Positions 9,729-53,957 of a stretch of 64,000 nucleotides of DNA are shown here, piece after piece. Positions within the stretch are counted from its first letter, which is position 1, and every line of letters starts with the position of its first letter. The stretch is from Pseudoclavibacter helvolus (GTDB lineage: Bacteria; Actinomycetota; Actinomycetes; Actinomycetales; Microbacteriaceae). A program made the translations under genes and the position numbers. The notes under the pieces are model-generated. The model saw only the letters and a program-made list of their open reading frames with translations, was not told where the DNA came from and searched no databases. The stretch covers positions 1-64,000 of the forward strand of contig NZ_JACHWJ010000001.1 in assembly GCF_014191305.1 (NCBI RefSeq). Direction: 5' to 3'.

Positions 9729-10178
9729 ATGACTGACTGGAACGTGCGCCCCGTGACTTCGCTGGACGAGCCGGCCTGGCGTGAGCTGTATCGCGGCTAT
9801 CGGGAGTTCTACAGGGTCCCCGCCGACGAGTCGAAACTGGACGTCGTCTGGTCGTGGTTGGGTGATGAGGCCCACGAGACGCACGGCTTCGTCGCGGTCG
9901 ACGAAGAAGGGCGCCTGGGCGGGATCGCGCACGTGCGTCGTTTCGCGAGGCCCCTGTCCGCGACGACGGGACTCTACCTCGACGACCTCTTCACGTCGCC
10001 AACCGTGCGCGGAGGTGGGGCAGGCAAGGCGCTCCTCATGCATCTCGGCGACTACGCGCGCGAATCAGGACTGAGCGTCGTGCGCTGGATCACCGCCGAG
10101 GACAACACGACCGCGCGGCGGCTCTACGACGCCGTTGCGAAGCAGACTCCCTGGGTGACGTACGACATCGTGTCGTAA
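9729..10178 (+). CDS. GNAT-family N-acetyltransferase
   Basis: A 149-residue single-domain GNAT fold. The acetyl-CoA-binding motif is visible as VRGGGAGKALLMHL after the beta4 strand TTGLYLDDLFTSPT, and the C-terminal block ITAEDNTTARRLYDAV is characteristic. The substrate cannot be read from sequence. The ATG at 9729 gives the conserved-looking start MTDWNVRPVTSLDE; the longer open frame upstream runs through the promoter region and is unlikely to be translated. It is divergent from the DUF6891-like gene, and 106 bp separate it from the DUF2252 gene downstream, so the two could be cotranscribed. Confidence 0.85.
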   Translation: MTDWNVRPVTSLDEPAWRELYRGYREFYRVPADESKLDVVWSWLGDEAHETHGFVAVDEEGRLGGIAHVRRFARPLSATTGLYLDDLFTSPTVRGGGAGKALLMHLGDYARESGLSVVRWITAEDNTTARRLYDAVAKQTPWVTYDIVS

Positions 10179-10284: not shown

Positions 10285-11709
10285 ATGCCGACACACCTCA
10301 GCCGCCTGCAGCGCGATCGCGCGCCTCGGCCAACCCGCGACGAGCTCTACGCTGCCGGCAAGGCGCTCCGCAAGACGCAGCCGCACGTCGAACACGCGAT
10401 CTTCGTCGCGGGGGAGCGCGAGCCTGGGGCGATCCTGGCAGAGCAGAACGCGGCAAGGCTGCCCGACCTTGTGTCGCTGCGCATGGGGCGGATGCTCGCG
10501 AGCCCCTTCACGTTCTACTGCGGGACCGCCGCGATCATGGCTCACGACCTCGCGCAGGGGGTCAGCACGGGCATCCAGGTTGTCGCGTGTGGCGACGCGC
10601 ACCTCAGCAACTTCGGGCTGTTCGGGTCGCCCCAGCGCACGCTCGTGTTCGACCTCAACGACTTCGACGAGGCGGCATCGGCGCCGTGGGAGTGGGACCT
10701 CAAACGGCTCGTGGCGAGCGTCGTCGTCGGCGCTCGTGACCTCGGGCTGACCGAGGAGAAGACGCGCAAGGCAGCCCGGCGGGCCGCGGCCGCCTACCGG
10801 GAGGGCATGCGAGAGATGGTTGGCCACTCGGCCCTCGACCGCTACTACCTGCGACTCGACACGGATGTGGCACATCCGTCGTTCCGGACCGAGGCGCAGG
10901 AGGTCCTCGCGAAGGCGACGAAAAGCGCGAGGAAGCGCACCTCGCAGAAGTTCGTCGACAAGCTCACCGAGCGTGCCGCGGACGGGACGAGGCTCATCGT
11001 CGAGAACCCACCCGTCATGATGCACGTCTCACCCGAGGCGGAGTCGCGCGTCGAGGAGCTGTTCGAGCAGTACCGCGCCACGGTGAGCACCGACGTGGCC
11101 TTCCTGCTCGGCAACTTCACGCTCACGGACGTCGCTCGGCGGGCAGTGGGGGTCGGCAGCGTCGGCACGCGATGCTTCATCCTGATCCTGACGGGTCCGG
11201 CGGGCGAGGCGCTTGTCCTACAGGTCAAGGAAGCGCCGGCATCGGTGCTCGAGACCTACGGGGACGTCGATCCGAGGCGCCTCCTGCAGGCTCGATCACG
11301 CGAGGAGTACGACGAGCTCGGCGAGGGCTACCGGGTCGTCAGCTGCCAACGCATCCTGCAGGCGGTCTCCGACCCCTTCCTCGGTTATCTGCGGTTCGAG
11401 GGGGAGGACGGCGTGCTGCGCGACTATTACGTGCGCCAGTTCCGCGACATGAAGGGCTCGGTCGAGCTTGAACAGCTCAACTCTTCCGAGTTCACGAAGT
11501 ACGTGGAGGCCTGCGGAACCCTGCTGGCGAGAGCCCACGCGCAGAGCCCCATCGCGCCGATGATCGCGGGGTACCTCGGCAAGAGCGGCTCGTTTGACGA
11601 CGCGATGGCGGAGTGGGCCATCGGCTACGCGGAGCAGTCGGGGCTCGACTACGCCGAGCTGCTCGCGGCCCGCGACCGCGGCGACTTCGAGGCCGTCTCC
11701 GACCGGTAG
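10285..11709 (+). CDS. DUF2252 domain protein
   Basis: A 474-residue protein covering the DUF2252 family over its whole length. Conserved blocks include LRMGRMLASPFTFYCGTA (about residues 65-82), GDAHLSNF (103-110) and DLNDFDEA (123-130), followed by WEWDLKRL. The last blocks resemble the catalytic and metal-binding loops of kinase-like phosphotransferases, but no substrate is established for the family. A purine-rich GAGGAAGG lies upstream of the ATG at 10285. It converges on the siderophore-interacting protein gene with only 6 bp between stops, leaving no room for a classical terminator. Confidence 0.85.
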   Translation: MPTHLSRLQRDRAPRPTRDELYAAGKALRKTQPHVEHAIFVAGEREPGAILAEQNAARLPDLVSLRMGRMLASPFTFYCGTAAIMAHDLAQGVSTGIQVVACGDAHLSNFGLFGSPQRTLVFDLNDFDEAASAPWEWDLKRLVASVVVGARDLGLTEEKTRKAARRAAAAYREGMREMVGHSALDRYYLRLDTDVAHPSFRTEAQEVLAKATKSARKRTSQKFVDKLTERAADGTRLIVENPPVMMHVSPEAESRVEELFEQYRATVSTDVAFLLGNFTLTDVARRAVGVGSVGTRCFILILTGPAGEALVLQVKEAPASVLETYGDVDPRRLLQARSREEYDELGEGYRVVSCQRILQAVSDPFLGYLRFEGEDGVLRDYYVRQFRDMKGSVELEQLNSSEFTKYVEACGTLLARAHAQSPIAPMIAGYLGKSGSFDDAMAEWAIGYAEQSGLDYAELLAARDRGDFEAVSDR

Positions 11710-11715
11710 TCGGCC

Positions 11716-13509
11716 TCAGCTCGCGGGCGGGCGCTGCAGCTCGAGCGCCTCGTGGTCCCATCCGAGCGGCGTCGCGCGGACGAGTCGCCAGCCAGCTCTC
11801 CTGGCAAGCGACTCGAGGTCCTGCAGGCTCCGTGGCGGGGTCCCCGTGGCGGCGTAGGCGAGGAGCGCGTGCTCGGCCGCGTGGGCCGATGGCGCCGAGC
11901 TCTCGGGTTGGAACAGCTCGATGATGACGGCGGCACCCGCCCGCTCGGCCAACCGAGTGAGGAACGCGACCGCTTCCTCGTCGGTGCGCTGCGCGAGGGC
12001 AAGCGCCGAGGCAACGACGTCCGCGTCAGTAGCGCCGAAGCTCTCGGCGGCCTCGAACTCGCTGCCGGGCTGTGACTTGCGCGCCGCGTCCAACTCGAGG
12101 AGCGAGCCGACAACGGTGACCCGTGTCGCACCGGCAAGCGCGTTCGAGAAGGCGACGCTTCCCGGCCCCGTCACGGCGACCGCATGAGCTTCCCTCAGCG
12201 TCTGCAGGCCCGTGACTCCTCTGGCGACGAAGTCGAAGCCGATTGCCGCCTCGACTTTCTCCTGCAGTCGAGCGAAACTGTCGGCGGAGCGCCTACGGAG
12301 CGTCGCACCGTTGGCGGTCAGGTACGGCGGCCTTCCCGTTCGCAGGGAGTCCGCCAGGTGTGCGAGCGACAGCAGGAGCTCGGCCTCGACAGCGTCGTCG
12401 AGGCTCTCGCGGAGGTGCTCGTCTTCCAGGATCACGTCGCCGGCTGGCCCGAGGGCCACGAGGCCCGTGGAGACCCGCACCGCATCGAACGCGGCGAGGG
12501 CCTGCACCAGGGCCCGGACGCCGCCCTCGTCGAGCGCGAGGTCGCCCGCGAGGGCCGCGATCGGACGTGGGGTGCTCGCGACGGCATCCAAGAGACCCGT
12601 CGAGAGCGCGGCCCGCGCGGCGAACCATGGGACAGGAGAGAGGAGCTCGTCGAGTTCGAGCGGATGCTGCCGTGCCGCATCTGCCGTCTCGAGTACCGGG
12701 ACAGCCTGGGCCGCCTGCTCGGTCGCGTGCCAGTACCCGGTGATGTTGACGTGGGTCTTCGGAATGCCGCGGTCGCGGGCGCACCAGCGCCGGAGCGGGA
12801 GTAGAGAGCGGCTCTCGCCCGCGACCCACACGTACCCGGTGCCCGCGGGGAGTTCGCGTGCCATGACGGCGCCCACGAGGGCGCTCTCCGCGCCCGACGA
12901 GGCGACGACCCAGCGCAGTTCGTCGCCGTCGCGGATGCTGAGCTGCTGGATGGCGTGCTCGTCCTGCACCTCCACGATGACGATCGCCGGGACGTCGCCA
13001 GGTCGTTCGTCGAGGTAGCGACCGATGGCCGGGAGCGCGGTCTCATCACCGGCGAGCAGCATCCACTCGACGTCGGACGGCAGCACAAGCGACGACTTAG
13101 GGCCCACGATGTGGAGGGAGTCACCCACAGCTGCGGCCTCAGCCCAGGTTGCCGCCGGGCCATCGCCGTGCCGGACGAAGTCGAGCTCGAGTTCGCCCAG
13201 CGCCGCATCGAAGCGGCGGGGAGTGTAGTCGCGCGTGAGCGTGACCCCGCTGTCGGTCCAGTCGATCGAGTGCGCGCGCTGGATGGGCAGCGCCTCGGCG
13301 ATCGGGCCCCCGTCGGCGAAGACCAGTTTGACATGATCATCGAACCCCGTGCTCACGAACTCCGGCAGGTCGAAGCCGGAGTTCGTGAACTCCTGGAGCT
13401 GCGGGCCGGTGAGCGTGACGCGACGCATTCGCGGCGTCACGTCGACAACTCGACTCACGGTGAGCTCGCGGAGGACAAGGGGATGGGTGACGAAGTTGCG
13501 CTGCGGCAT
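11716..13509 (-). CDS. Siderophore-interacting protein (ViuB/SIP family) fused to an O-methyltransferase-like domain
   Basis: A 597-residue two-part protein. Residues 1 to about 265 form a SIP/ViuB-type NAD(P)H:flavin ferric-siderophore reductase: FAD-binding half with TPRMRRVTLTG and RDYTPRRFD, then the SIP half with WMLLAGDETALPAIGRYL and the terminal HVNITGYWH. Residues about 290-597 look like a small-molecule methyltransferase. A helical dimerisation/winged-helix segment (FAARAALSTGLLDAVAS) precedes an apparently degenerate Rossmann half in which the glycine-rich SAM loop is weak (AHAVAVTGPGSVAFS). The reductase would release iron from imported siderophores in the cytoplasm; the added domain's role is unknown. 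The ATG at 13509 has an AGAAGG site upstream. It lies 53 bp downstream of the broken binding-protein gene, in the same direction. Confidence 0.85.
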   Translation of the reverse strand: MPQRNFVTHPLVLRELTVSRVVDVTPRMRRVTLTGPQLQEFTNSGFDLPEFVSTGFDDHVKLVFADGGPIAEALPIQRAHSIDWTDSGVTLTRDYTPRRFDAALGELELDFVRHGDGPAATWAEAAAVGDSLHIVGPKSSLVLPSDVEWMLLAGDETALPAIGRYLDERPGDVPAIVIVEVQDEHAIQQLSIRDGDELRWVVASSGAESALVGAVMARELPAGTGYVWVAGESRSLLPLRRWCARDRGIPKTHVNITGYWHATEQAAQAVPVLETADAARQHPLELDELLSPVPWFAARAALSTGLLDAVASTPRPIAALAGDLALDEGGVRALVQALAAFDAVRVSTGLVALGPAGDVILEDEHLRESLDDAVEAELLLSLAHLADSLRTGRPPYLTANGATLRRRSADSFARLQEKVEAAIGFDFVARGVTGLQTLREAHAVAVTGPGSVAFSNALAGATRVTVVGSLLELDAARKSQPGSEFEAAESFGATDADVVASALALAQRTDEEAVAFLTRLAERAGAAVIIELFQPESSAPSAHAAEHALLAYAATGTPPRSLQDLESLARRAGWRLVRATPLGWDHEALELQRPPAS

Positions 13510-35957: not shown

Positions 35958-36839
35958 GTGAAGGTCACCGAGCTGCGCATCGACGATGCGCTCGTCCTGA
36001 GTGCCAACTCCGAAGAGTTGAGCGGACGCGAGCGACGGCTGGCGCTCGAAGTGCTCTCCACCGGTGACCGCGAACGACTCCGTGGGATGAGCGATGCCCG
36101 AGCGGACGCCTTCCTCGCGGGTCGGCTGCTCGTTCACGCGGGACTCGCGAGCCTCGCTCCGCGTCTCGATCTCCCCCCTTCAACTCTCGTTCCAGAGCGC
36201 CACGTTCCCGGTTCCGATCTGCCTCCTTCAAATCTCGGGATGGGTTTCGCGCTTCGGGATGGGTTGCAACCCATCCCGAAGCGCGAAAACCATCCCGAAA
36301 CGAAAGGGTGGGAGCAGGCACCGGAGCAGACGCGAGAGTGGGCGCGGGAGCGGGGGCAGGTGTCCGAGGGCGGCGGAAACCTAATGCAGGCGGTGGCGCT
36401 CGAGGTCGTGTGCTCGCGCTGCGGTTCGAGTGGGCACGGCAAGCCGAGCCTCCCGGGCGTACCTGTGCTGGTCAGCATCGCGTACGCCGGCCCGACGGTC
36501 TTCGTCGCGCTCGCGAGCGCGGATGGCTGCTTGGCGCTCGGCATCGACGCCGAAGCGCTGGGACTCGACAGCGAAAAGCCGGCACTCAACAGCGAAAGCC
36601 CCAGCCCCCGCGTCGAGTCCGACGTCGAGTGCGGACCGGCCGGGGACCTCGAGCGTTGGACGGTCGTCGAGGCGGTCCTCAAGGCCGACGGTCGGGGGCT
36701 CCGGGTCGACCCAGCCGAGGTGGAGTTCGATGGAGATGCTCTGGCGCGTGTCGGCGACGATGACGCGGCCTACCGCATCCACCGGACTGTCATCGACGAC
36801 CGATTCCTCGTGGCGGTCGCTCTGAGGATGATCGGCTAG
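35958..36839 (+). CDS. 4'-Phosphopantetheinyl transferase-like protein with inserted segment
   Basis: Transfers phosphopantetheine from CoA to a carrier-protein serine. Family blocks are DARADAFLAGRLLVHAGL, the CSRCGSSGHGKPSLPG segment, SIAYAGPTVFVALA, LGIDAEALG (the GxDxE magnesium site) and ERWTVVEAVLKADGRGL (WxxxEAxxKA). These match Sfp/EntD-type enzymes. The GTG at 35958 with AGGGAGG upstream gives 293 residues, about 60-70 more than usual. The excess lies between about residues 72 and 150 and is encoded by DNA holding a 64-bp palindrome (36235-36298) and proline/charge-rich filler. It converges with the M1 peptidase gene next to the Pls-type synthetase, its likely client. The inserted segment may or may not abolish activity. 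Confidence 0.75.
   Translation: MKVTELRIDDALVLSANSEELSGRERRLALEVLSTGDRERLRGMSDARADAFLAGRLLVHAGLASLAPRLDLPPSTLVPERHVPGSDLPPSNLGMGFALRDGLQPIPKRENHPETKGWEQAPEQTREWARERGQVSEGGGNLMQAVALEVVCSRCGSSGHGKPSLPGVPVLVSIAYAGPTVFVALASADGCLALGIDAEALGLDSEKPALNSESPSPRVESDVECGPAGDLERWTVVEAVLKADGRGLRVDPAEVEFDGDALARVGDDDAAYRIHRTVIDDRFLVAVALRMIG
36235..36298. repeat. 64-bp near-perfect palindrome inside the phosphopantetheinyl transferase gene
   Basis: Two 31-bp arms with a single mismatch meet at a palindromic centre (GGGTTGCAACCC). Each arm contains two copies of CGGGATGGGTT separated by CGCGCTT-type sequence. The element is translated in frame. It looks like a REP/MITE-type insertion; no target-site duplication could be identified. 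Confidence 0.9.
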
Positions 36840-38203
36840 AGCCTCTGGCGAGGAAGCCGGGACACCCTCGCCGGTGCACCTGCCGGGAGCTCCGGGAGCG
36901 CAAGCTGGTACAGCCACGCGTCGAAGAGCTCATGGAGGGGAGCCGCCGGAACGACTGCCGCGGCATGCTCGAGGAACTCCGCGGTCGACGCCACGGAGGA
37001 TCGCTTCTTCTGCGTCCAGCTCGTCAGGATCTCGAAGAAGGCGGAGTCGCCGATCGTGAGGCGCAGCGCGTGCAGGGTGAGCGCACCGCGCTTGTACACA
37101 CGGTCGTCGAACATATCGGCGGCGCCGGGGTCGCCGAGCAGGAGATCCTGCGGCAGTCTAGAGAGCGAGCGCCAGTAGTGCCTGGCGAGCTCGTCGGCGC
37201 TCTCGGCGCCGCTTGCCTCGGACCAGATCCATTCGGCGTAGCAGGCGAAGCCCTCGTTGAGCCAGATGTGCTGCCAGCCGGCCACGCCGACGCTATTGCC
37301 GAACCACTGGTGCGCGAGCTCGTGCGCGACGAGCCGCTCCTGTCCGCGCGCCCCGTCGATCTGGTTGGCGCCGAAGATGGCCATGCCCTGGGCTTCGAGG
37401 GGAATCTCGAGGTCGTCGGCGGTCACGATCACGGCGTAGGTGTCGAAGGGGTACGGGCCGAACGTCAGCTCGAAGGTGCCCATCATCTTCGCGAGGTCGG
37501 CGAGGTCGGTGCCGACCCGGCGGGCGAGCGAGTGCGGGTAGTGCAAGTGGCCGGCGACTCCGGCGAGCTGCACGTCCTCGCGCTGGTACCGCCCGATCTG
37601 GAGGGTCACGAGGTAGCTGGCGGTCGGCGCCGCCTCCTCGTAGACCCACGTGGTCAGCCCGCCAGAGGCTCGCTTCGAGGTGAGGGAGCCTGTCGCGACG
37701 ACGTCGTAGTTGCTGTTGACTGAGACCTGGATGCGGTAGCTCGCCTTGTCGCCGGGGTGGTCGTTGCAGGGGAACCAGGTCGGGGCGCCCGTTGGCTGCG
37801 AGGCGACGATGATGCCGTCTTCGAGTTCCTCCCAGCCGATGACGCCCCATCGGGAGCGTCGGGGACGTGGCGCGCCCTCGTAGACGACCTCGAGTGCGAT
37901 TTCGTCCCCGACTTCGACTCGCTTCGAGAGAGTGACCTTGAGCTTGCGGTCGCTCTGCTTGAAGCGTGCCTGCTTGTCACCGCGAACAGTGACTTTGCTC
38001 ACGCGGAGGCCGACGAGGTCGAGCGAGAACGCGGTGAGCGGCACGGCCGTGCGGATGCTGAGGGTCGCGGTGCCGGAGAGTCGGTTGTTCTGCATCCGGT
38101 ACTTGAGCGCCAGCTCGTAGCGTTCGACCCTGATGCTGACGTCCCCGCTCTGCGGGGTGTAGGGGTTGCCGGGCAGTGGCTCTGGTGCCGCCGCGCGGAT
38201 CAT
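36836..38203 (-). CDS. M1-family metallopeptidase coupled to the Pls-type synthetase
   Basis: A 455-residue zinc peptidase with HELAHQWFGN (His294 to His298) and LNEGFACYAEW (third ligand). It is shorter than PepN, lacking the large C-terminal domain, with the N-terminal beta domain containing SQPTGAPTWFPCNDHPGDKASY. No signal peptide is seen. The ATG at 38203 overlaps the stop of the synthetase gene (ATGA), so the two are translationally coupled, and its stop overlaps the stop of the convergent PPTase gene by 3 bp within one CTAG. M1-type aminopeptidases are known as poly-epsilon-lysine-degrading enzymes in producers, so trimming or self-protection against a polyamine peptide is a reasonable role (inference). 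Confidence 0.85.
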   Translation of the reverse strand: MIRAAAPEPLPGNPYTPQSGDVSIRVERYELALKYRMQNNRLSGTATLSIRTAVPLTAFSLDLVGLRVSKVTVRGDKQARFKQSDRKLKVTLSKRVEVGDEIALEVVYEGAPRPRRSRWGVIGWEELEDGIIVASQPTGAPTWFPCNDHPGDKASYRIQVSVNSNYDVVATGSLTSKRASGGLTTWVYEEAAPTASYLVTLQIGRYQREDVQLAGVAGHLHYPHSLARRVGTDLADLAKMMGTFELTFGPYPFDTYAVIVTADDLEIPLEAQGMAIFGANQIDGARGQERLVAHELAHQWFGNSVGVAGWQHIWLNEGFACYAEWIWSEASGAESADELARHYWRSLSRLPQDLLLGDPGAADMFDDRVYKRGALTLHALRLTIGDSAFFEILTSWTQKKRSSVASTAEFLEHAAAVVPAAPLHELFDAWLYQLALPELPAGAPARVSRLPRQRL

Positions 38204-41200
38204 GAAACCTTCGACTGGTAGGCGCGCAGCTTGACGGCACGCCATGGGCCGATGGGGTTGCCGCTCCAGCGGCTGCCGACGGGAACCGACTCACCGCGCA
38301 TGACCAGGGACGCTGGCCCCACGGTGGCGTGAGCGCCGATCGTGGCGGCCGGGAGGATCACGCTGTGCGGTCCGAGCGTTGCGCCTGCTTCGAGGGTGAC
38401 GGTGTCCATGCTCATTATTCGATCATGGAATAGGTGAGTCTGGACAACGCAGCCCCGGTTGACGGTGGCTCCGTCGCCGAGTGTGACCAGATCGGCTTCC
38501 GGCAGCCAGTACGAATCGCACCAGACGCCCTTGCCGATCTTCGCGCCGAGCGAGCGGAGCCACATCGCGAGAGCCGGCGTTCCGGCGGCGCCTCGGGCGA
38601 ACCAGGGGGCCGCGACCATCTCGACGAATGTGTCGGCGACCTCGGTGCGCCACACGAAGCTCGACCACAGTGGCTGCTCGGAGACGCGGATGCGCCCCAC
38701 GATGACCCACTTGGCGAGGGTCGAGACGGCAGCGGATGCTGCTGCTGCCGCGAGCAGCACGAACCCGGACAGGACGATGCTCCAGCCGACGCCGACGGTC
38801 GTCTCGATGGTGGCGAGCCCGAAGAGCACGCCGAGCCCGAGGCCGCAGGTCACGATGACGGGGACGATGCGGCACAGCTCCCAGAGGGCTCGCGCGACTC
38901 GGAGCGCCTGCGGCGGGTTGTAGGTGCGGGATTCGTCGCCGTCGACCGTGACGCGGCGGAGGCGGACGGGCGGGGAGCCGAGCCAGGACGAGCCGGGCTT
39001 CGCCTTGGCGGGCGCGGCGGAGAGCACGGCGACGAGGCCGTCGCGGGGGACCGAGTGGCCGGCGGCGGCCATGCCCGAGTTGCCGAGGAACGCTCGCGCG
39101 CCGATGCGGGCGCGCTCGATGCGCATCCACCCGTTGTGCAGTTCGTAGGAGGCGACCATCGTGTCGTCGGCGAGGAACGCGCCGTCGTCGATCTGGGTCA
39201 TCGAGGGGAGGAGTAGCACGGTCGAGGCTTCGACGTCGCGGCCGACCTTGGCGCCGAGCATGCGCAGCCAGACGGGCGTGAAGAGGCTCGCGTAGAAGGG
39301 GAAGAGCATGGTGCGGGCCGCGTCGAGGAGACGCTCGATGCACCAGGCCTGCCAGGCGACCCGCGAGCGCACGGGGTGCGTGCCCTCGGTGAGCCCGATC
39401 GAGAGGAGCCGGACGAAGACGACCACGAGCCCCGCGAAGGTCACTCCGGTGGCGAGCACTGCGGGGGCGAGCCAGGCGAACGCGGCGAGTGCAGCATCTC
39501 CGAGTGAGTCGGCACCGCGCATCCCGGCTGCGACGACAACTCCACCCACGCCGAAGGAGAACAGCGGGAGGAGCGCGAGCGCGACGGAGGCGACGGCGTA
39601 GACGGCGGCCCAGCCGAAGGGTTCCGGCGGGCGCTCGGCCGGCCAATCGCTGGCGCGCACCTTGCCGACCCGAACGGCGGGCGAGCCCGCCCAGCTCTTG
39701 CCGGAGCGAACCCGGCCGAAGACCGCGGACCCTGGCGCGATCTCTGCGCCCTGGCCGATCTTCGTGCCGGGCGCGAGCGTGCTGCGCGCGCCGACGGTTG
39801 CGCCGGCGCCGATGCGGATGCCGCCGATGCGGACGAGCGCGCCGTCGATCCAGTACCCCGTGAGGTCGACTTCCGGCTCGATGGCGGCGCCGTCGCCGAG
39901 CTGCAGCATGCCGGTCACGGGAGGGAGCGAGTGCAGGTCGACGTTGTTGCCGACCTTCGCGCCGAGTGCGCGAGCGTAGTAGACGACCCAGGGCGCTCCC
40001 GCGAGGCCGACGGCGTCGATCTGGGTGGCTACCTGCTCGGCGAGCCAGAGGCGCATGTGCGTGGATCCGCCCCGCCGGTAGTCGCCGGGCTTCAGGCGGA
40101 AGAGGAGGATGCGCGCGGCGGCGACCGAGATCGCCATCTTGCCGAATGGGGTCACGAAGACGACGAGCATGACGATGATGAGCCAGGCCGGCGCATCCGG
40201 GAGTACGTCGAAGCCGGGGAGGAGCTGCAGTAGCGCGCTCGCCGTGAGCAGGTAGGTGACCCAGCGTGCGCCGGCCAGGATGTGCAGGGGGAGACCGGCG
40301 ACGAGCTGCAGGATGCGCGCCGACAGCGGCGTGGGCCCTGGCGTGCTGAAGGAGGTCGGTAGTTCGTCCTCGTCGTCGAGCGCTTCGGTGATCGACTCGG
40401 TCATTGCGCCGAGGCGGGGGTGGTCGTAGACGTCGGCGACGGTGAACTCGGGCACCCTGGAGCGGACTCGCGTGACGAGCTGGGCGGCCGAGAGCGAGCC
40501 TCCGCCGAGGTCGAAGAAGTCAGCGTCCTCGCTGCCGATGGGCAGTCCGAGGACGGCCTGCCACTGCTCGGCGAGCCAGGCGACGTGGCCGTCGAGGTCT
40601 CCGGAGACTTCGTCGGCTCCCGGTAGCGGCCAGGGGAGGGCGTTCTTGTCCACCTTGCCTGAGGTGCGGGTCGGCAGGGACTCGACCTCGGCGAGGAGCG
40701 GCACGAGCGCCTTCGGGAGCTGCTCGCCGAGCTCGGCTCGCGCGAGCTGGCGTTCGTAGCCTGGCCCCGTCACGATGTAGCCGACGAGGATGGAGACGCC
40801 GGCCGAGGTCTTGCGGACCGCGACGGCCGACCCGGTCACGCCGGTCACGGCCTGCAGCGCCGCCTCGACTTCGCCGAGCTCGATGCGTCGGCCGCCGATC
40901 TTGACCTGGTCGTCGGCGCGCCCGAGGAACACGAGTCCCTCTGCCTCGTACTTGACGAGGTCGCCCGAGCGGTAGGCGCGTTCCCAGCCAAGGCTCTCCA
41001 TGGGGGCGTATTTCTCGGCGTCCTTGGCAGGGTCGAGGTAGCGGGCGAGGCCCACGCCGCCGATGATGAGCTCGCCGGACTCGCCCTCGGCGACGCGCTT
41101 GCCCTCGGCGTCGACCACCGCGAGCTCCCAGCCGTCGAGCGGCAGGCCGATGCGGATGGGCGGGGTACCGTCGAGCAGAGCAGCGCAGGCGACGACGGTC

Positions 41201-42138
41201 GCCTCGGTCGGTCCGTACGTGTTCCATACCTCGCGGCCTTCGCCGACGAGGCGCTGCGTGAGCTCGAGCGGGCAGGCTTCGCCGCCGAAGATGAGGAGCC
41301 TGACCTGCTCGATGGTCTCGCTCGGCCAGAGCGCGGCGAGGGTCGGCACCGTGGAGACGACGGAGATCTGGTGTCTGAGCAGCCACGGGCCGAGATCTTC
41401 TCCGGAGCGGACCAGCGATCGCGGGGCCGGCACGAGGCACGCGCCGTACCGCCAGGCGAGCCACATCTCCTCGCAGGAGGCGTCGAAGGCGACGGAGAGG
41501 CCGGCGAGCACGCGGTCTCCGGGCCCGATCGGGTCCTGCTGGAGAAAGAGCTTCGCCTCCGCGTCGACGAACGCCGCGGCCGATCGGTGCGAGACCGCGA
41601 CGCCCTTCGGTACTCCAGTTGATCCCGATGTGAAGATCACCCAGGTATCGTCGTCCAGGTGTGGTCCGTCGAGTTCGGCGAGGCTGCTGCTCTCGGGATG
41701 CGGGGCCCCGCCGTCGAAGAGGCTGACGGGTTCGCCCGCCTGCTGGTCGCCGTCGGCCGCGAGCACGAACTCGCCGTCGCCCTGGATGGTGCCGCGCACC
41801 TTGGCCTCACCGAAGACAAGCACGGCCCGCTCGTCTGGGTCATCGACGTCGACGGGCACGTAGGCGGCGCCGGCGGCGATGATCGAGAGGATCGCGATGT
41901 ACAGCTCTCGCGTGCCGGAGACGAGTCGCACGCCGACCTTGTCGCCCCTCCGTACCCCCGCATCCTGCAGCAGCTTGGCCGTCTGCGCGACGTAGGCCGT
42001 CAGGTCCTGGTAGCTGAGCGGGGCGTCGCCGTCGTCGATCGCGATGGCGTCGGGATGCGCGGTGGCCGTCGCCGAGAGCACGTCGATGAGCGTGCGGGGC
42101 GTGGGGGCTGCCGCGGATCGGTCCAGAGGGGATTGCAC
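38200..42138 (-). CDS. Pls/PosA-family single-module non-ribosomal peptide synthetase (poly-amino-acid synthetase-like)
   Basis: A 1312-residue membrane enzyme. Residues 1 to about 500 are an adenylation domain: VIFTSGSTGVPKG, FDASCEEMWLAWRYG, NTYGPTEATV, YRSGDLV, GRADDQVKIGGRRIELGE and PTRTSGKVDKNALPW. A thiolation domain follows with FFDLGGGSLSAAQL (Ser548 would carry phosphopantetheine). The C-terminal 700 residues alternate membrane helices with three left-handed-beta-helix (hexapeptide) segments, the architecture of poly-epsilon-lysine synthetase. No condensation or thioesterase domain is present. The amino acid is unknown; a basic diamino acid (lysine, diaminobutyrate, diaminopropionate) is typical for the family. 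The start is GTG at 42138, with no clear ribosome-binding site. It is followed by the coupled M1 gene and convergent PPTase. Confidence 0.88.
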   Translation of the reverse strand: MQSPLDRSAAAPTPRTLIDVLSATATAHPDAIAIDDGDAPLSYQDLTAYVAQTAKLLQDAGVRRGDKVGVRLVSGTRELYIAILSIIAAGAAYVPVDVDDPDERAVLVFGEAKVRGTIQGDGEFVLAADGDQQAGEPVSLFDGGAPHPESSSLAELDGPHLDDDTWVIFTSGSTGVPKGVAVSHRSAAAFVDAEAKLFLQQDPIGPGDRVLAGLSVAFDASCEEMWLAWRYGACLVPAPRSLVRSGEDLGPWLLRHQISVVSTVPTLAALWPSETIEQVRLLIFGGEACPLELTQRLVGEGREVWNTYGPTEATVVACAALLDGTPPIRIGLPLDGWELAVVDAEGKRVAEGESGELIIGGVGLARYLDPAKDAEKYAPMESLGWERAYRSGDLVKYEAEGLVFLGRADDQVKIGGRRIELGEVEAALQAVTGVTGSAVAVRKTSAGVSILVGYIVTGPGYERQLARAELGEQLPKALVPLLAEVESLPTRTSGKVDKNALPWPLPGADEVSGDLDGHVAWLAEQWQAVLGLPIGSEDADFFDLGGGSLSAAQLVTRVRSRVPEFTVADVYDHPRLGAMTESITEALDDEDELPTSFSTPGPTPLSARILQLVAGLPLHILAGARWVTYLLTASALLQLLPGFDVLPDAPAWLIIVMLVVFVTPFGKMAISVAAARILLFRLKPGDYRRGGSTHMRLWLAEQVATQIDAVGLAGAPWVVYYARALGAKVGNNVDLHSLPPVTGMLQLGDGAAIEPEVDLTGYWIDGALVRIGGIRIGAGATVGARSTLAPGTKIGQGAEIAPGSAVFGRVRSGKSWAGSPAVRVGKVRASDWPAERPPEPFGWAAVYAVASVALALLPLFSFGVGGVVVAAGMRGADSLGDAALAAFAWLAPAVLATGVTFAGLVVVFVRLLSIGLTEGTHPVRSRVAWQAWCIERLLDAARTMLFPFYASLFTPVWLRMLGAKVGRDVEASTVLLLPSMTQIDDGAFLADDTMVASYELHNGWMRIERARIGARAFLGNSGMAAAGHSVPRDGLVAVLSAAPAKAKPGSSWLGSPPVRLRRVTVDGDESRTYNPPQALRVARALWELCRIVPVIVTCGLGLGVLFGLATIETTVGVGWSIVLSGFVLLAAAAASAAVSTLAKWVIVGRIRVSEQPLWSSFVWRTEVADTFVEMVAAPWFARGAAGTPALAMWLRSLGAKIGKGVWCDSYWLPEADLVTLGDGATVNRGCVVQTHLFHDRIMSMDTVTLEAGATLGPHSVILPAATIGAHATVGPASLVMRGESVPVGSRWSGNPIGPWRAVKLRAYQSKVS

Positions 42139-42259
42139 GCAGCAACGCTACCGGCCGAAGGTAACGCGGTGGTTGCCGATCGTCTTCGCGCCGCGGGGAC
42201 GCGTCCGTATTTCACCCACTGGATTTCGAGGAGTCGTTGTCGAACCTGACTTTCTCCCG

Positions 42260-42278
42260 TAAGGTAACCCTAGCCTTA
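42260..42278. promoter_or_regulatory. Candidate DtxR/IdeR iron box 1
   Basis: TAAGGTAACCCTAGCCTTA is a 19-bp imperfect palindrome close to the remembered consensus TTAGGTTAGGCTAACCTAA. It lies 121 bp before the HtaA-type gene and 122 bp before the synthetase gene, so it could govern either or both. Confidence 0.6.
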
Positions 42279-42398: not shown

Positions 42399-44066
42399 AT
42401 GACAGCAGTGCAAGAACGGAAGGCCGGCCGGTCGTCCGCGCTGGCTCGCGGTGGCGCGACACTCGCCGCCGCTGGCCTCATCGCGGCGGGCCTCGGCCTG
42501 GGCGCAGCACCGGCGTCGGCCGCTGAAGGCGACGCAAACGTCGAGAACGTCTCGTTCTCGTGGCAGCTCAACGACGAGACCGGTGGCGGCGCCTACTTCG
42601 GCGGCTGCAACTTCCTCGTCGCGGGAGCGGCGGGAGACAGCGGCTCCTCGCGTCTCTGGACCGAGGCGGACGGCTTCTACAAGGCATCGGAAGGCAACGT
42701 GACCATCACGAAGCTGAACGCTGCTGGCGAGCAGATCGCTCCCACCTGGGGTACGAAATGCCAGACGCCGGCGGGCGGCAACGTCTCGCCGAGCGCCGGC
42801 TCGACGAGCAACAACCGCGTCAACTTCGCGGCTGGCACGGGAACGGTCAACCCCGCGACCGACACCGGCACCATCTCGTGGGAGGGTGACTTCACGATCG
42901 TCTTCTACGATGGTCTGACGTACTGGACGGTCTCCGACCCAGTGCTGAACGTCGTCAACGGCGTCGGAACGCTCAAGGGCACGGCCTCCGGCTACGGAAC
43001 CTCGATGGAGGACATGACGCAGTGGGTGCCGATCGCTCCAGAGCAGATCGACCTCGCCACGCTCGACGGTGTCGACATCACGGCAACCGGCGTCTCGGTC
43101 ACCCCCGACTACGCAGGCGTCGAGGTTACGACGGCGGGCACGCCGCAGAACCGATCGGCCGCGAGCTGGGGCTCGTTCCCGCAGTCGCTGGTCGACTTCA
43201 ACAACAAGACCGGCCAGTCCTCCTACTGGTACTCCTCGGGCGGCGCAGCTGACCCGAAGAAAATCGCGAAGGGCTTCTCCGCGACCTACGCGGAGATCGT
43301 CACTCCTGAGGTTCCCGGCACGCCCGACGGCAACGTCGACGTGGTCATCCCCGAGTTCGAGGAGCCGATCGATCCAGAGACCGGTTCGTTCTCGTGGGCT
43401 TGGGCTGACCCGAACGGCGCCAACCTCGGCACCGCTGTGCAGACCGGCGACAGCTTCGTCGCCAACGGCTCGATCAGCGACGTCGCCGTGATCGACACGC
43501 GTGCTGGTGGCACGGCGTCGTACGGCTGGACGGTCTCCGGACAGTCCACCGACTTCAGCAACGGCACCGACACAATCTCGGCCGCCAACCTCGGCTGGGC
43601 TCCCAAGCTCGCTGAGGGTACGAGCCCGAGCGTGACAAAGGGTGCTGCCGCGACCGGCCTCAACACGGCGCAGCAGCTCGCGACGTCGAACGCCGCCGCA
43701 AGCGCAACCCTTGGTGCTGACCTCACGCTGACGGTCCCCACCACCACGAAGCAGGGCGCGTACTCCGCGACCCTCACCATAGCGTCTAGGTCGCCGTTCC
43801 AGACCTCGGTGATCTGCTCATCGACTACCCGCGCGGATTCGCCCTTTTCAAGGAGCTTTCGGATGCGCTCAGACTCTTTGCGGGGCCAGTGGCCGAAGAA
43901 CGCCCAACCGAGTGGCGCGAAGGCTTCAGCTGCGAGCTGTACTTCCCTGGTCAGGGACTCGATCGAATCTGCCATGGTCAGATGGCATTCGGTGATTCGC
44001 TCACTTCGACGAGTCCGCGGCGGCACGCACGGAGCCCCGCTGAGCTCGGGGGAGAGCTGGATTTAG
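42399..44066 (+). CDS. HtaA-type haem-binding surface protein, 3' end lost at a scar
   Basis: Secreted haem-acquisition protein. Starting at the ATG at 42399 (CAGGAGAACTC upstream), a basic segment and hydrophobic core end in an Ala-x-Ala signal-peptidase site (GAAPASAAEG). The HtaA-like domain covers about residues 45-300 (SFSWQLNDE, GGAYFGGCNFLVAGAAGD, LWTEADGFY, YWYSSGG). A second beta domain begins SFSWAWADPNG and ends GAYSATLTI. Around 43780 the native coding sequence stops. The last 95 codons to 44066 (SPFQTSVICSSTTRADSPF onward) are antisense to another gene and not real protein. No membrane or sorting signal remains. Iron regulation is suggested by the two boxes upstream. Confidence 0.8.
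   Translation: MTAVQERKAGRSSALARGGATLAAAGLIAAGLGLGAAPASAAEGDANVENVSFSWQLNDETGGGAYFGGCNFLVAGAAGDSGSSRLWTEADGFYKASEGNVTITKLNAAGEQIAPTWGTKCQTPAGGNVSPSAGSTSNNRVNFAAGTGTVNPATDTGTISWEGDFTIVFYDGLTYWTVSDPVLNVVNGVGTLKGTASGYGTSMEDMTQWVPIAPEQIDLATLDGVDITATGVSVTPDYAGVEVTTAGTPQNRSAASWGSFPQSLVDFNNKTGQSSYWYSSGGAADPKKIAKGFSATYAEIVTPEVPGTPDGNVDVVIPEFEEPIDPETGSFSWAWADPNGANLGTAVQTGDSFVANGSISDVAVIDTRAGGTASYGWTVSGQSTDFSNGTDTISAANLGWAPKLAEGTSPSVTKGAAATGLNTAQQLATSNAAASATLGADLTLTVPTTTKQGAYSATLTIASRSPFQTSVICSSTTRADSPFSRSFRMRSDSLRGQWPKNAQPSGAKASAASCTSLVRDSIESAMVRWHSVIRSLRRVRGGTHGAPLSSGESWI
43780..43974 (-). pseudogene. Unknown gene, only the first 65 codons remain
   Basis: From the ATG at 43974 a credible protein start reads MADSIESLTREVQLAAEAFA, then PLGWAFFGHWPRKESERIRKLL and VVDEQITEVWNGDLDA. 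Codon usage and helical pattern look genuine. After about 43780 the frame runs antisense into the HtaA-type gene, so the rest of this gene is missing. I do not recognise the family with certainty. It meets the htaA-type gene tail to tail at the scar. Confidence 0.6.
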
Positions 44067-50120: not shown

Positions 50121-50237
50121 GCACACTCCGTGTCGATGTTGGCGGCACCGAGTCTGGGGTGCCTGTTGTGAACCCATCTAGGGTAGCCGCTTCCGGGGTG
50201 ACGCGGGTTGCCGGGCGGGTCGCCTGCGAGGGTGCGG

Positions 50238-50272
50238 AAAAGCCCCTCAAGGGCGCATCCTCGAGGGGCTCA
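50238..50272 (-). terminator. Terminator downstream of pckG
   Basis: AGCCCCTC pairs with GAGGGGCT around a 14-base loop. On the minus strand the stem is followed by TTTTCC. It is the second of two hairpins after pckG. Confidence 0.7.
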
Positions 50273-50320
50273 GCTGCGGGCACAGGGGCTCGAGCCGCCA
50301 GCTTTCCAACAGCTGGGAGT

Positions 50321-50359
50321 TGTGCGCCCCTCCGCGCCACGCGCGCGCGGAGGGGCACA
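50321..50359. terminator. GC-rich hairpin immediately downstream of pckG
   Basis: TGTGC-CCCCTCCGCGC pairs with GCGCGGAGGGG-CACA with one bulge and a 5-base loop. It lies 40 bp after the pckG stop, so with the next hairpin it forms a double terminator. The 279-bp gap between pckG and valS holds these hairpins and the valS promoter; nothing else was recognised. Confidence 0.6.
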
Positions 50360-50399
50360 TCTTGCGGCGAGTGGTCGGAGTCCCTCCCGCCGCCGTCTG

Positions 50400-52301
50400 T
50401 CAGGCCCCGATGGGGGCCTTGGTCTGAGTGGATGTGGCAGCCGCATCCAGTGCACCGTGGACGGCGTCGAGCTCGGTGTAGAGGGCCGCTGGCACCTTCT
50501 CGCCGATGCTGTCGAAGTACTCGCGCGTCACGCCCACCTCGACGAGCCACGATGCTGGGTCGACCGTGAAGATCTCCTCGAGCGCCGCCGGGTCGAAGCC
50601 CTCGAGGCCCGAGATGTCGATGTCGCTCGTCACGGGCAGCTGGCCAATGGGGCTCTCGAGCGCCTCTGCGCGGTTCTCGAGCCGGTCCACGATCCACTTC
50701 ACGGCGCGCACGTTCTCGCCGAAGCCGGGCCAGAGGAACTTGCCGTCCTGGTCCTTGCGGAACCAGTTGACCTGGAAGATGCGTGGGGCCTTGTCGCCGA
50801 GGTCGGCACCGATGTTCAGCCAGTGGCCCCAGTAGTCGGCCATGTGGTAACCGGCGAACGGCTGCATGGCAAACGGGTCGCGGCGCAGGATGCCGACGGG
50901 TCCTTCAGCCGCGGCGGTCTGCTCGCTCGCGAGCGTCGCGCCGAGGAAGCAGCCGTGCTTCCAATCCTTGGACTCGAAGACCAGCGGAACGTTGCTCGCG
51001 CGGCGGCCTCCGAACAGGATGGCGTCGACAGGCACGCCGTCCGGCGCCTCCCAGGCGGGGGACAGGGTCGGGCACTGCGAGGCGCGCACGGTGAAGCGGG
51101 CGTTGGGATGCGCAGCCTTGGTCCCGGATTCCGGGGTCCAGTCGTTGCCCTGCCAGTCGATGAGGTGTGCAGGCGTCTCGTCGGTCATGCCCTCCCACCA
51201 CACGTCTCCGTCGTCCGTCAGCGCGACGTTCGTGAAGATGGTGTTCGTCTTAATGGTCTCCATCGCGACGGGGTTGGTGTCGTAGCCCGTGCCCGGTGCG
51301 ACTCCGAAGAAGCCGAACTCCGGGTTGATGGCGTTGAGGCGCCCGTCTGCGGCCTTGCGCATCCACACGATGTCGTCGCCGAGCGTCTCGACCTTCCAGC
51401 CGTCGAGCTTGGGCTTCATCATCGCGAAGTTCGTCTTGCCGGTCGCCGACGGGAACGCGCCCGTGAGCGTGTACGTCTTGCCCTCGGGGCTCGTGACCTG
51501 GATGAGGAGCATGTGCTCGGCCATCCAGCCCTCGTCGTGGCCCATCGCCGAGGCGATGCGCAGCGCAAAGCACTTCTTGCCGAGGAGCGCGTTGCCGCCG
51601 TAGCCGGAGCCGAACGAGATGATCTCGCGCGTCTCAGGGAAGTGGGTGATGTACTTCGACTCGTTGTGCGGCCAGGCGACGTCCGGACGGCTCGTGCCGT
51701 CCTCGAACTCAAGTGGGAAGCCGACGCTGTGCAGGGCCTTCACCCAGTCGCGGCCTGGCGTGAGGTGCTCGAGGGCGCCGTCGCCGGAGCGGGTCATGAG
51801 CGCCATCGAAAGCACGACGTAGGGGGAGTCGGTGATCTCGACGCCGTACTGCGTGATCGCGCCGCCGAGCGGCCCCATCGCGAACGGAACGACGTACATG
51901 GGGCGTCCGCGCATGGAGCCGTCGAAGAGGCCACTGAGCTCGGCCTTCATCTCGGCGGGTGCACGCCAGTTGTTCGTCGGGCCTGCGTCTTCCTCGTTCT
52001 CCGAGCAGATGTAGGTGCGGCTCTCGACACGGGCGACATCGCCGGCGTCGGAGCGGGCGAGGTAGGAACCGGGGCGAAGCTCTTCGTTGAGCTTGATGAG
52101 TGTGCCTGCTTCGACCATCTCGGCGGTGAGTGCGTCGATCTCCGCCTGCGAGCCGTCACACCACACGATGCGGCTCGGCTTCGTGAGTGCGGCGATCTCG
52201 CGAACCCAGTCGTTAACTTCTGGGTTCGCCGCCCGCTGCGGGACGTCGAGGTGAGGTTGTGCGTGTCGAGTCATTTCGATGCTGCTTTCACGGTTCTGCA
52301 T
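50400..52301 (-). CDS. pckG: Phosphoenolpyruvate carboxykinase (GTP)
   Basis: Gluconeogenic enzyme converting oxaloacetate and GTP to phosphoenolpyruvate. It has 633 residues from the ATG at 52301 (GGAG upstream); an ATG at 52274 would give the more usual length. GTP-PEPCK blocks are abundant: [30 protein letters not shown], the kinase loop [49 protein letters not shown] and [16 protein letters not shown]. In the kinase loop the usual FPSACGKTN cysteine is Thr287. Divergent from a RamB-like regulator, which in corynebacteria controls acetate and gluconeogenic genes, so regulation of pckG by its neighbour is plausible. Confidence 0.95.
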
Positions 52302-52391
52302 GCCAGCTATCTCCGGCTCACATGCGTACATGGCGTCGTACACCCAGTGTTGACCCGCCCGACGCACCAAAGGATGGAGATTGGCCGAGAA

Positions 52392-52405
52392 AAATGGCAA
52401 AATTT
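52392..52405. promoter_or_regulatory. Weak RamB-like motif between pckG and the RamB-like gene
   Basis: AAATGGCAAAATTT sits in the 138-bp divergent region in an otherwise GC-rich context. On the other strand it contains TTTTGC, resembling half of the TTTGCAAA-type RamB site recalled from corynebacteria. Offered as a candidate only. Confidence 0.3.
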
Positions 52406-52439
52406 CACGCATCAGCAATTCAGATGCCCGGAGGCACCC

Positions 52440-53957
52440 ATGAGCGGACTCGGTCCTTTCCCCGCTGCGCAAAAATCGTCAGCATCCAGAGGGAAAGGTG
52501 GCGCAGTGGACTCCCTCCTGCTCGGGCGGCGCATCCGCTTCTTCCGCAAGGAACGCTCGCTCACACTGGAAGCCCTCGGCGAGAAGACGGGCCTCCTCGC
52601 GAGCCAGCTGTCGCTCATCGAGAACGGCAAGCGCGAACCAAAGCTCTCCGTGCTGCAGCAACTCGCCGACGCATTCGACGTCGAGCTCAGCGACATGCTC
52701 GCCAACACGCCCCCTGACGACCGCTCCCGCCTCGAGATCGAGGTCGAGCGAGCCCAGACCTCAACCGTCTACCGGGAACTCGGACTGCCCCGCATCCCCT
52801 CCACCAAGTCGCTCTCCGACGAGGTGCTCCGCGCCCTTGCCGGCATGCACAGCGAGATCGTGCGGCGCCAGACCGAGGCGAGCGCGACCCCGGAGGAAGC
52901 ACGCCGTGCCAACACCGAGCTTCGCCTCGCGATGCGCGCCCACGACAACTACATGCCAGACCTCGACAAGCTCGCCGACGAGCTGCTCAGCCGCGTCGAC
53001 CACACCCGTGGCGCACTCATGCACCACTCGGTTGGCAAGATGGCGGACCACCTCGGGTTCCAGCTCATCTACGTCAACGACCTACCCCGCTCGACCCGCT
53101 CCATCACCGACCTCGAGAACGGCCGCATCTACCTGCCGCCTGCCTCCATCCCTGGCGGGCACGGGCTGCGGGCGATGGCGCTGCAGGCCATGGCGCACCG
53201 GGTGCTCGGTCACCGTCGCCCGGAGGACTACGCGGACTTCCTGCGCCAGCGTCTGGAGATCAACTACTTCGCGGCGGCCTGCCTCATGCCGGAGGCGCGG
53301 TCGGTCGCGTTCCTCCGTGACGCGAAGGAACGCCGCGACATGGCCGTCGAGGACTTCCGTGACGCGTTTGGCGTGACCCACGAGGCCGCAGCCCTTCGGA
53401 TGACGAACCTGCTCACCTCCCACCTCGACATCAAACTGCACTTCCTGCGCGTCGACGACAAGGGCTCGATCTCGAAGGCCTACGAGAATGACGGGCTCCC
53501 GCTTCCGCAGGACGTCACGGGGTCAGTTGAGGGACAGTTCGTGTGCCGTAAGTTCTCGGCGGTGAGCTCCCTGGCCCGCACGAACCGCACGACCGAGACG
53601 TACCAGTACACGGACACCCCGGCCGGCACGTTCTGGTGCTCGACGCAGACAGGCCACGCGGATGCTGGCGAGTTCTCCATCACGATCGGGGTGCCGTTCG
53701 ACGAGGCACGCTGGTTCCGTGGGCGCGACACGAAGCAGCGCGCATCCTCGACCTGCCCGGACGGCGCCTGCTGCCGCACGCCGGGCGCTGACCTCAGCGA
53801 GCGCTGGTCGGCGAAGGCCTGGCCGAGCGCTCGGGTGCACGCGCACGTCTTCTCGCCGCTGCCCACCGGAGACTTCCCAGGCGTCGACCAGCGCGAAGTG
53901 TTCGAGTTCCTCGAGCGCCACGACATCGACGCCGACAGGGCGACCGCAGACGCCTAG
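52440..53957 (+). CDS. RamB/ScfR-type transcriptional regulator (XRE HTH plus IrrE-like and C-terminal domains)
   Basis: A 505-residue regulator. The N-terminal XRE helix-turn-helix spans about residues 28-85 ([50 protein letters not shown]). A central DUF955/IrrE-like segment contains [39 protein letters not shown]; the classical HExxH is degenerate (MAHRVLGH). The C-terminal domain has the Cys-containing blocks [15 protein letters not shown] and CPDGACC. This is the layout of RamB of Corynebacterium and related short-chain fatty acid regulators. The ATG at 52440 with GGAGG 5 bases upstream fixes the start; the huge upstream frame is antisense to pckG. Confidence 0.88.

What the first reader, a model, noticed from the sequence alone, without database searches (positions are those of the whole stretch)
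35958..42138. Compact poly-amino-acid (Pls/PosA-type) synthetase cluster with its own peptidase and PPTase
The 1312-residue synthetase has one adenylation and one thiolation domain followed by membrane helices and three hexapeptide-repeat segments. It has no condensation or thioesterase domain, the layout known from poly-epsilon-lysine synthetase. An M1 peptidase is translationally coupled to it (ATGA), and a PPTase converges on it with overlapping stops. A maker, an activator and a possible trimming enzyme in 6.2 kb suggest a self-contained system for an isopeptide polymer. Iron-box-like sites lie upstream, so iron or host-like conditions could induce it. The monomer is unknown.
Basis: partly seen in the sequence, partly recalled or inferred. 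Interest (0 to 1): 0.75.

Follow-up and report, generated by a model that had tools for sequence, protein, structure and literature searches.

The report
Poly-lysine antibiotic synthetase operon
This is an ordinary copy of the known bacterial enzyme pair that makes and cuts the natural antimicrobial polymer epsilon-poly-lysine, next to a gene that probably activates the enzyme; the nearby iron switch most likely belongs to a different gene.

Summary
The anatomy is real. window:38200-42138(-) encodes a 1312-aa A-T-Pls/PosA-terminal-domain synthetase. A short M1 peptidase overlaps its stop by 4 bases (ATGA), and an Sfp-type PPTase ends convergently with overlapping stops. The monomer can be predicted: the ten pocket residues (DAESIGTVVK) are identical to those of the solved A domain of S. 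albulus epsilon-poly-L-lysine synthetase (64.9% identity) and differ from a probable PosA (DMEHNGTVSK). The published pls-pldII operon has the same 4-bp overlap (PMC4361855), and a Corynebacterium pls with adjacent peptidase gene makes epsilon-poly-L-lysine in Streptomyces (PMC8117764). M1 follows pls in 80 of 80 kept relatives; 117 of 299 genomes sampled from the family carry the synthetase over the curated cut-off. So it is a new member of a known kind. Two additions: a convergent PPTase is found in 35 of 80 loci (28 by a motif-checked profile, 20 by tblastn); and the single good iron box goes with the divergent HtaA-type gene, because in one relative pls lies 1290 bases from the box while htaA stays 138 bases from it. 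Product and iron response were not measured.

The parts
38200..42138 (-). pls: epsilon-poly-L-lysine synthetase (A domain aa ~12-508, T domain ~521-581 with Ser548, membrane/hexapeptide terminal domain 610-1296)
36836..38203 (-). pldII-like short M1 metallopeptidase, 455 aa, HEXXH-X18-E present, start overlaps pls stop (ATGA)
35958..36839 (+). Sfp-type phosphopantetheinyl transferase (GIDAE and WTVVEAVLK motifs), convergent, end overlaps that of the M1 gene; Pfam match below the family cut-off
42260..42278 (+). DtxR/IdeR-type iron box in the divergent intergenic region; assigned to the HtaA-type gene, not to pls
42399..44066 (+). HtaA-domain protein (neighbour, probably iron regulated; not part of the polymer system). 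ATG at 42399 preferred over GTG 42321; where the true gene ends within this open frame was not settled

Best explanation
A Pseudoclavibacter-type member of the known epsilon-poly-L-lysine system. The A domain activates L-lysine (pocket shown to be identical; activity inferred). The T domain, after phosphopantetheine is added by a PPTase (inferred: the convergent one or the genome's second Sfp-type enzyme), holds lysyl-thioester. The membrane-bound three-fold hexapeptide domain joins epsilon-amino to alpha-carboxyl repeatedly and the chain leaves the cell (inferred from published Pls and PosA). The translationally coupled M1 peptidase is PldII, which cuts the polymer to protect the producer and set chain length (by position and family; function shown only in Streptomyces). 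The iron box serves the divergent HtaA-type gene.
For: 314 of 484 aligned residues (64.9%) are identical to the S. albulus Pls A domain 7WEW, and the ten pocket residues DAESIGTVVK are identical. The same code occurs in 101 of 112 rows (window, 7WEW and one piece of the window's own genome counted); the 11 others are plasmid- or phage-collection relatives fetched for contrast, and the Acinetobacter one reads DMEHNGTVSK, with the residues published for PosA. A-domain tree of 31 rows: window and 7WEW lie on the same side of a split with support 1.000 from PosA-like and other types. TIGR02353 714 bits. M1 follows pls on the same strand in 80 of 80 loci by tblastn, at most 2173 bases away; 79 of 80 by a stricter open-frame rule. 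A Streptomyces plasmid record annotates the same 4-base overlap of Pls and M1 family metallopeptidase. Published: pls-pldII 4-bp overlap and operon; C. variabile pls, with adjacent peptidase gene, makes epsilon-PL in S. coelicolor; PldII repression lowers tolerance and gives longer polymer.
Against: No product was measured. In the published C. variabile case the native host and C. glutamicum made no detectable polymer, so the operon may be silent here. The window M1 is 43% identical to the Streptomyces NBC_01454 one; no sequence of S. albulus PldII itself was in hand. Two plasmid records with the Pls pocket have no annotated M1 next to pls, so the pairing is not universal. The PPTase scores below Pfam's cut-off. 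The window M1 starts without an obvious signal peptide (by eye), while PldII is reported outside the membrane.
Confidence: 0.92

Rival explanations
1. The synthetase polymerises another diamino acid (ornithine, diaminobutyrate, diaminopropionate, beta-lysine), giving a different or new polymer.
For: The family includes such enzymes with other pockets.
Against: All ten pocket residues equal those of Pls 7WEW. The published beta-lysine code is DGESISVVNK; the other codes seen here are DMEHNGTVSK, DLEDIGSVVK, DLEDIGTVVK, DFECLSVVTK, DFECLSAVTK, DFEALGTVTK and DFEYLGTVTK. Poly-diaminobutyrate and poly-diaminopropionate synthetases lie at 31-33% identity to a proven Corynebacterium Pls; the window is 64.9% identical to Pls in the A domain.
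Confidence: 0.05
2. The operon is induced by iron limitation through the box at 42260-42278.
For: The box is good (2 mismatches, 0.01 expected), lies 122 bases from the pls start, and is found between pls and htaA, close to both, in three relatives, L062, L101 and L103 (2 mismatches each).
Against: In L102 the box (3 mismatches) is 1290 bases from pls and 138 bases from htaA. In the 400 bases upstream of pls a box with up to 4 mismatches occurs in 1 of 80 named loci, and that one (L062) is the Pseudoclavibacter with the same htaA neighbour.
Confidence: 0.1
3. The synthetase or peptidase is a dead remnant.
For: None found beyond lack of product data.
Against: Intact frame, T-domain Ser548 and pocket aspartate and lysine, M1 zinc motif. 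Three unnamed same-genus genomes keep pls at 94.7-97.5% identity full length, and L062 at 93.4%.
Confidence: 0.03

Closest known systems
epsilon-poly-L-lysine synthetase Pls with PldII, Streptomyces albulus (A domain 7WEW)
   Same: Ten pocket residues; A-T-terminal-domain order and peptidase gene directly downstream with a 4-bp overlap
   Different: 64.9% A-domain identity; here an Sfp-type PPTase converges on the operon and an HtaA-type gene diverges from it
Pls of Corynebacterium variabile (PMC8117764)
   Same: Actinobacterial Pls in an operon with a peptidase; shown to give epsilon-PL in S. coelicolor
   Different: Other genus; the word phosphopantetheinyl does not occur in that paper's main text
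PosA, delta-poly-L-ornithine synthetase, Acinetobacter baumannii (PMC10522769)
   Same: Same overall architecture and terminal domain
   Different: The probable PosA of an Acinetobacter contig (L116) has pocket DMEHNGTVSK and 37.4% A-domain identity, and no M1 gene beside it in the 6.9 kb seen

Membership tests
epsilon-poly-L-lysine synthetase (Pls) | A-T-terminal domain (TIGR02353), no condensation or thioesterase domain | tested here: met
epsilon-poly-L-lysine synthetase (Pls) | Lysine pocket as in proven Pls | tested here: met
   DAESIGTVVK identical to 7WEW
epsilon-poly-L-lysine synthetase (Pls) | A-domain phylogeny within the Pls group, apart from PosA and others | tested here: met
   split support 1.000, (31 of 112 rows, chosen by hand)
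epsilon-poly-L-lysine synthetase (Pls) | Peptidase gene downstream in an operon | tested here: met
   ATGA overlap; M1 in 80 of 80 kept relatives. Shared transcription itself not tested
epsilon-poly-L-lysine synthetase (Pls) | Product is epsilon-poly-L-lysine | not testable with these tools
   needs LC-MS or an in vitro assay
PldII-type M1 peptidase | Short M1 protein with HEXXH-X18-E zinc site (motif recalled), next to pls | tested here: met
   compared with a Streptomyces M1 beside pls, not with S. albulus PldII itself
PldII-type M1 peptidase | Degrades epsilon-poly-L-lysine, sits outside the membrane | not testable with these tools
   reported for Streptomyces (abstract and passages)
Sfp-type PPTase | (V/I)GxDxE-like and WxxxEAxxK motifs (recalled) | tested here: met
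   GIDAE, WTVVEAVLK
Sfp-type PPTase | Pfam ACPS family score over the curated cut-off | tested here: not met
   19.9 bits against 25
PosA (delta-poly-L-ornithine synthetase) | Ornithine pocket with Met218, His260, Asn280, Thr304, Ser313 | tested here: not met

The most novel reading that the evidence does not exclude
In Micrococcales the poly-lysine operon travels with its own convergent PPTase, making a three-gene portable unit. In Pseudoclavibacter the polymer genes are, in addition, functionally paired with a haem/iron-capture gene, so that antimicrobial polymer and iron capture are deployed together.
Probability: 0.12. Interest if true: 0.35.

Novelty: new member of a known kind. Interest (0 to 1): 0.15.

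Why it matters
It extends a known food-preservative pathway to another actinobacterial genus and supplies a compact pls-pldII-PPTase set that could be expressed in a laboratory Streptomyces host. It also weighs against a tempting idea, iron control of poly-lysine synthesis at this locus.

Tried and rejected
Iron control of pls: rejected as the main reading (in L102 the box is far from pls and near htaA). A first scan for boxes upstream of pls assumed a start at position 10001, wrong for the loci with short left flanks; it was redone with true starts: 1 of 80, L062.

A PPTase that is the only possible activator: rejected. The genome has three PPTase-family matches: an AcpS-sized 125-aa frame, a match inside a 540-aa frame whose translation shows GVDIE and WTAKEAALK (L086), and the window's. 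On the carrier side, two carrier domains passed the cut-off in the whole genome, in an 87-aa frame (ACP-sized) and the Pls T domain, so the link PPTase-Pls stays likely but not exclusive.

PPTase counts: a first profile (37 of 80 loci) had been built from hits that included other-strand shadow frames and gave L101 the wrong orientation; I replaced it by a motif-checked one (28 of 80). That one misses L009, L010, L012, L014, L017, L020 and L062, which tblastn finds (20 of 80 by tblastn, 35 of 80 by either), and L101, positive by tblastn. Both tests start from the window's own protein, so distant PPTases elsewhere may be missed.

M1: L030 fails the open-frame rule but has a tblastn match. A 1000-base stretch (L105, genome G234) was fetched and not used beyond the blanket scan. 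No structure was predicted, since the family and its published model (PMC10522769 section 13) made it unnecessary. Tree rows: 31 of 112 A domains chosen by hand for spread; the terminal-domain tree holds 29 of them, without 7WEW and L113.

Full report
What is there. The window holds a 1312-aa synthetase on the minus strand (38200-42138), a 455-aa M1 peptidase starting inside its stop codon (ATGA at 38200-38203) and a PPTase on the plus strand (35958-36839) whose end overlaps that of the peptidase by 4 bases. Families: AMP-binding, PP-binding and TIGR02353 'Pls/PosA family non-ribosomal peptide synthetase' at 714 bits against a cut-off of 423. Peptidase: PF01433 and PF17900, with HEXXH-X18-E intact. 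PPTase: weak Pfam match below the cut-off, but the two Sfp-type motifs are present (motifs recalled). To one side lie clpX, clpP and trigger factor, to the other an HtaA-domain gene read divergently.

Where it is from. Among the 80 loci kept from the GTDB species set, the highest synthetase identity is to Pseudoclavibacter sp. AY1H1 (L062, 93%), with ClpX 99% identical. Of six same-genus genomes sampled, own included, five carry a strong TIGR02353 match and one does not. Of 299 genomes drawn from the family, 117 exceed the curated cut-off. So the gene is common but patchy.

Monomer. Ten pocket positions were read from an alignment of 112 synthetases (110 loci, the window and 7WEW). The window reads DAESIGTVVK, the same as the S. 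albulus epsilon-poly-L-lysine synthetase A domain 7WEW, and as 101 of 112 rows in all (window, 7WEW and one piece of the window's own genome, L089, included). The 11 others come from the plasmid and phage collections and were taken for contrast; among them an Acinetobacter synthetase reads DMEHNGTVSK, agreeing with the residues published for PosA, which acts as a positive control of the extraction. A-domain identity to 7WEW is 314 of 484 positions (64.9%), against 33.7-38.8% to those 11. The A-domain tree of 31 rows places the window with 7WEW on the Pls side of a branch of support 1.000; the terminal-domain tree of 29 rows shows the same division, also with support 1.000, though it cannot include 7WEW. 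Jiang et al. (PMC8117764, results and discussion read) use the same pocket argument for lysine and showed the product for Corynebacterium variabile by expression in S. coelicolor. They also list Microbacterium among genera with pls homologs.

Peptidase. M1 follows pls on the same strand in 80 of 80 kept genome loci by tblastn, at most 2173 bases away, and in 79 of 80 by a stricter frame rule. Two plasmid records with the Pls pocket, R. opacus pROB01 and S. viridifaciens pKVP2, show no annotated M1 beside it. A Streptomyces plasmid record annotates Pls and an M1 metallopeptidase with the same 4-base overlap, and passages of PMC4361855 state the 4-bp overlap and single operon for S. albulus pls-pldII. 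The abstract and passages of PMC9223678 report that repressing pldII lowers tolerance and gives longer polymer.

PPTase. A convergent PPTase lies 3' of pls in 35 of 80 loci: 28 by a profile with a catalytic-motif check and a 4.5-kb limit, 20 by tblastn, 35 by either. By record title the 28 are Microbacteriaceae, Arthrobacter and its relatives, Humibacillus and one MAG titled Propionibacteriaceae; none of the 35 is titled Nocardia, Rhodococcus, Tsukamurella, Mycobacterium, Mycolicibacterium or Williamsia. Both tests start from the window's protein and could miss distant PPTases there. PPTase genes are also annotated downstream of non-Pls family members in Shinella and Aureimonas. In the window's genome the Pls T domain is one of two carrier domains over the cut-off, but three PPTase-family matches exist, one of them a second Sfp type. 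The pairing is thus likely, not proven. In my searches I noticed no listed title or abstract that describes a PPTase linked to pls; most of those papers were seen as listings only.

Iron. One DtxR/IdeR-type box with 2 mismatches lies at 42260-42278, between pls and htaA (consensus recalled; a strict form and a half-site form gave none). L062, L101 and L103 have it at 2 mismatches between the two genes. In L102 the two genes lie further apart: the box (3 mismatches) is at 12035, htaA begins at 12173 and pls starts at 10745. The box therefore goes with htaA. Upstream of pls in the 80 named loci (400 bases, up to 4 mismatches) a box occurs only in L062. A shared effect on pls in the undivided arrangement cannot be excluded.

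Verdict. A new member of a known kind, well explained; interest low.

Noticed in passing
L102 10745-12035: In one Pseudoclavibacter-type relative the stretch between pls and the iron box is about 1.2 kb longer than in the window, which looks like an insertion splitting the divergent pair; its content was not identified.
   Followed up: partly
window 42139-42200: A stretch just upstream of pls (AACGCTACCGG...AAGGTAACGCG..GGTTGCCGA) looks well conserved, by eye, in four relatives, also in L102 where htaA lies further away; it may be the pls promoter.
   Followed up: no
L111 and L120: Alphaproteobacterial Pls/PosA-family synthetases (pocket DFEALGTVTK) have a PPTase gene downstream, directly in L111 and after one GNAT gene in L120; their monomer is not known to me.
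   Followed up: no
L110 (Rhodococcus erythropolis pLRE138): A plasmid-borne family member with pocket DFEYLGTVTK is overlapped by a BPL-N domain gene, followed by an acyltransferase-like gene; it could make a different polymer.
   Followed up: no
L119 (Skermanella mucosa pSM-2): A family member with pocket DFECLSVVTK lies next to ectB (diaminobutyrate transaminase), pointing to a diaminobutyrate polymer.
   Followed up: no
L116 (Acinetobacter contig filed as phage): The contig filed as 'Acinetobacter phage MD-2021a' carries a probable posA annotated as entF_2 beside greB and a tRNA, so that part looks chromosomal.
   Followed up: no
window 50208-53957: A 1249-aa open frame (TTG start) matches, in Pfam, only helix-turn-helix families, around aa 770-830; the true start may lie far inside it.
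   Followed up: no
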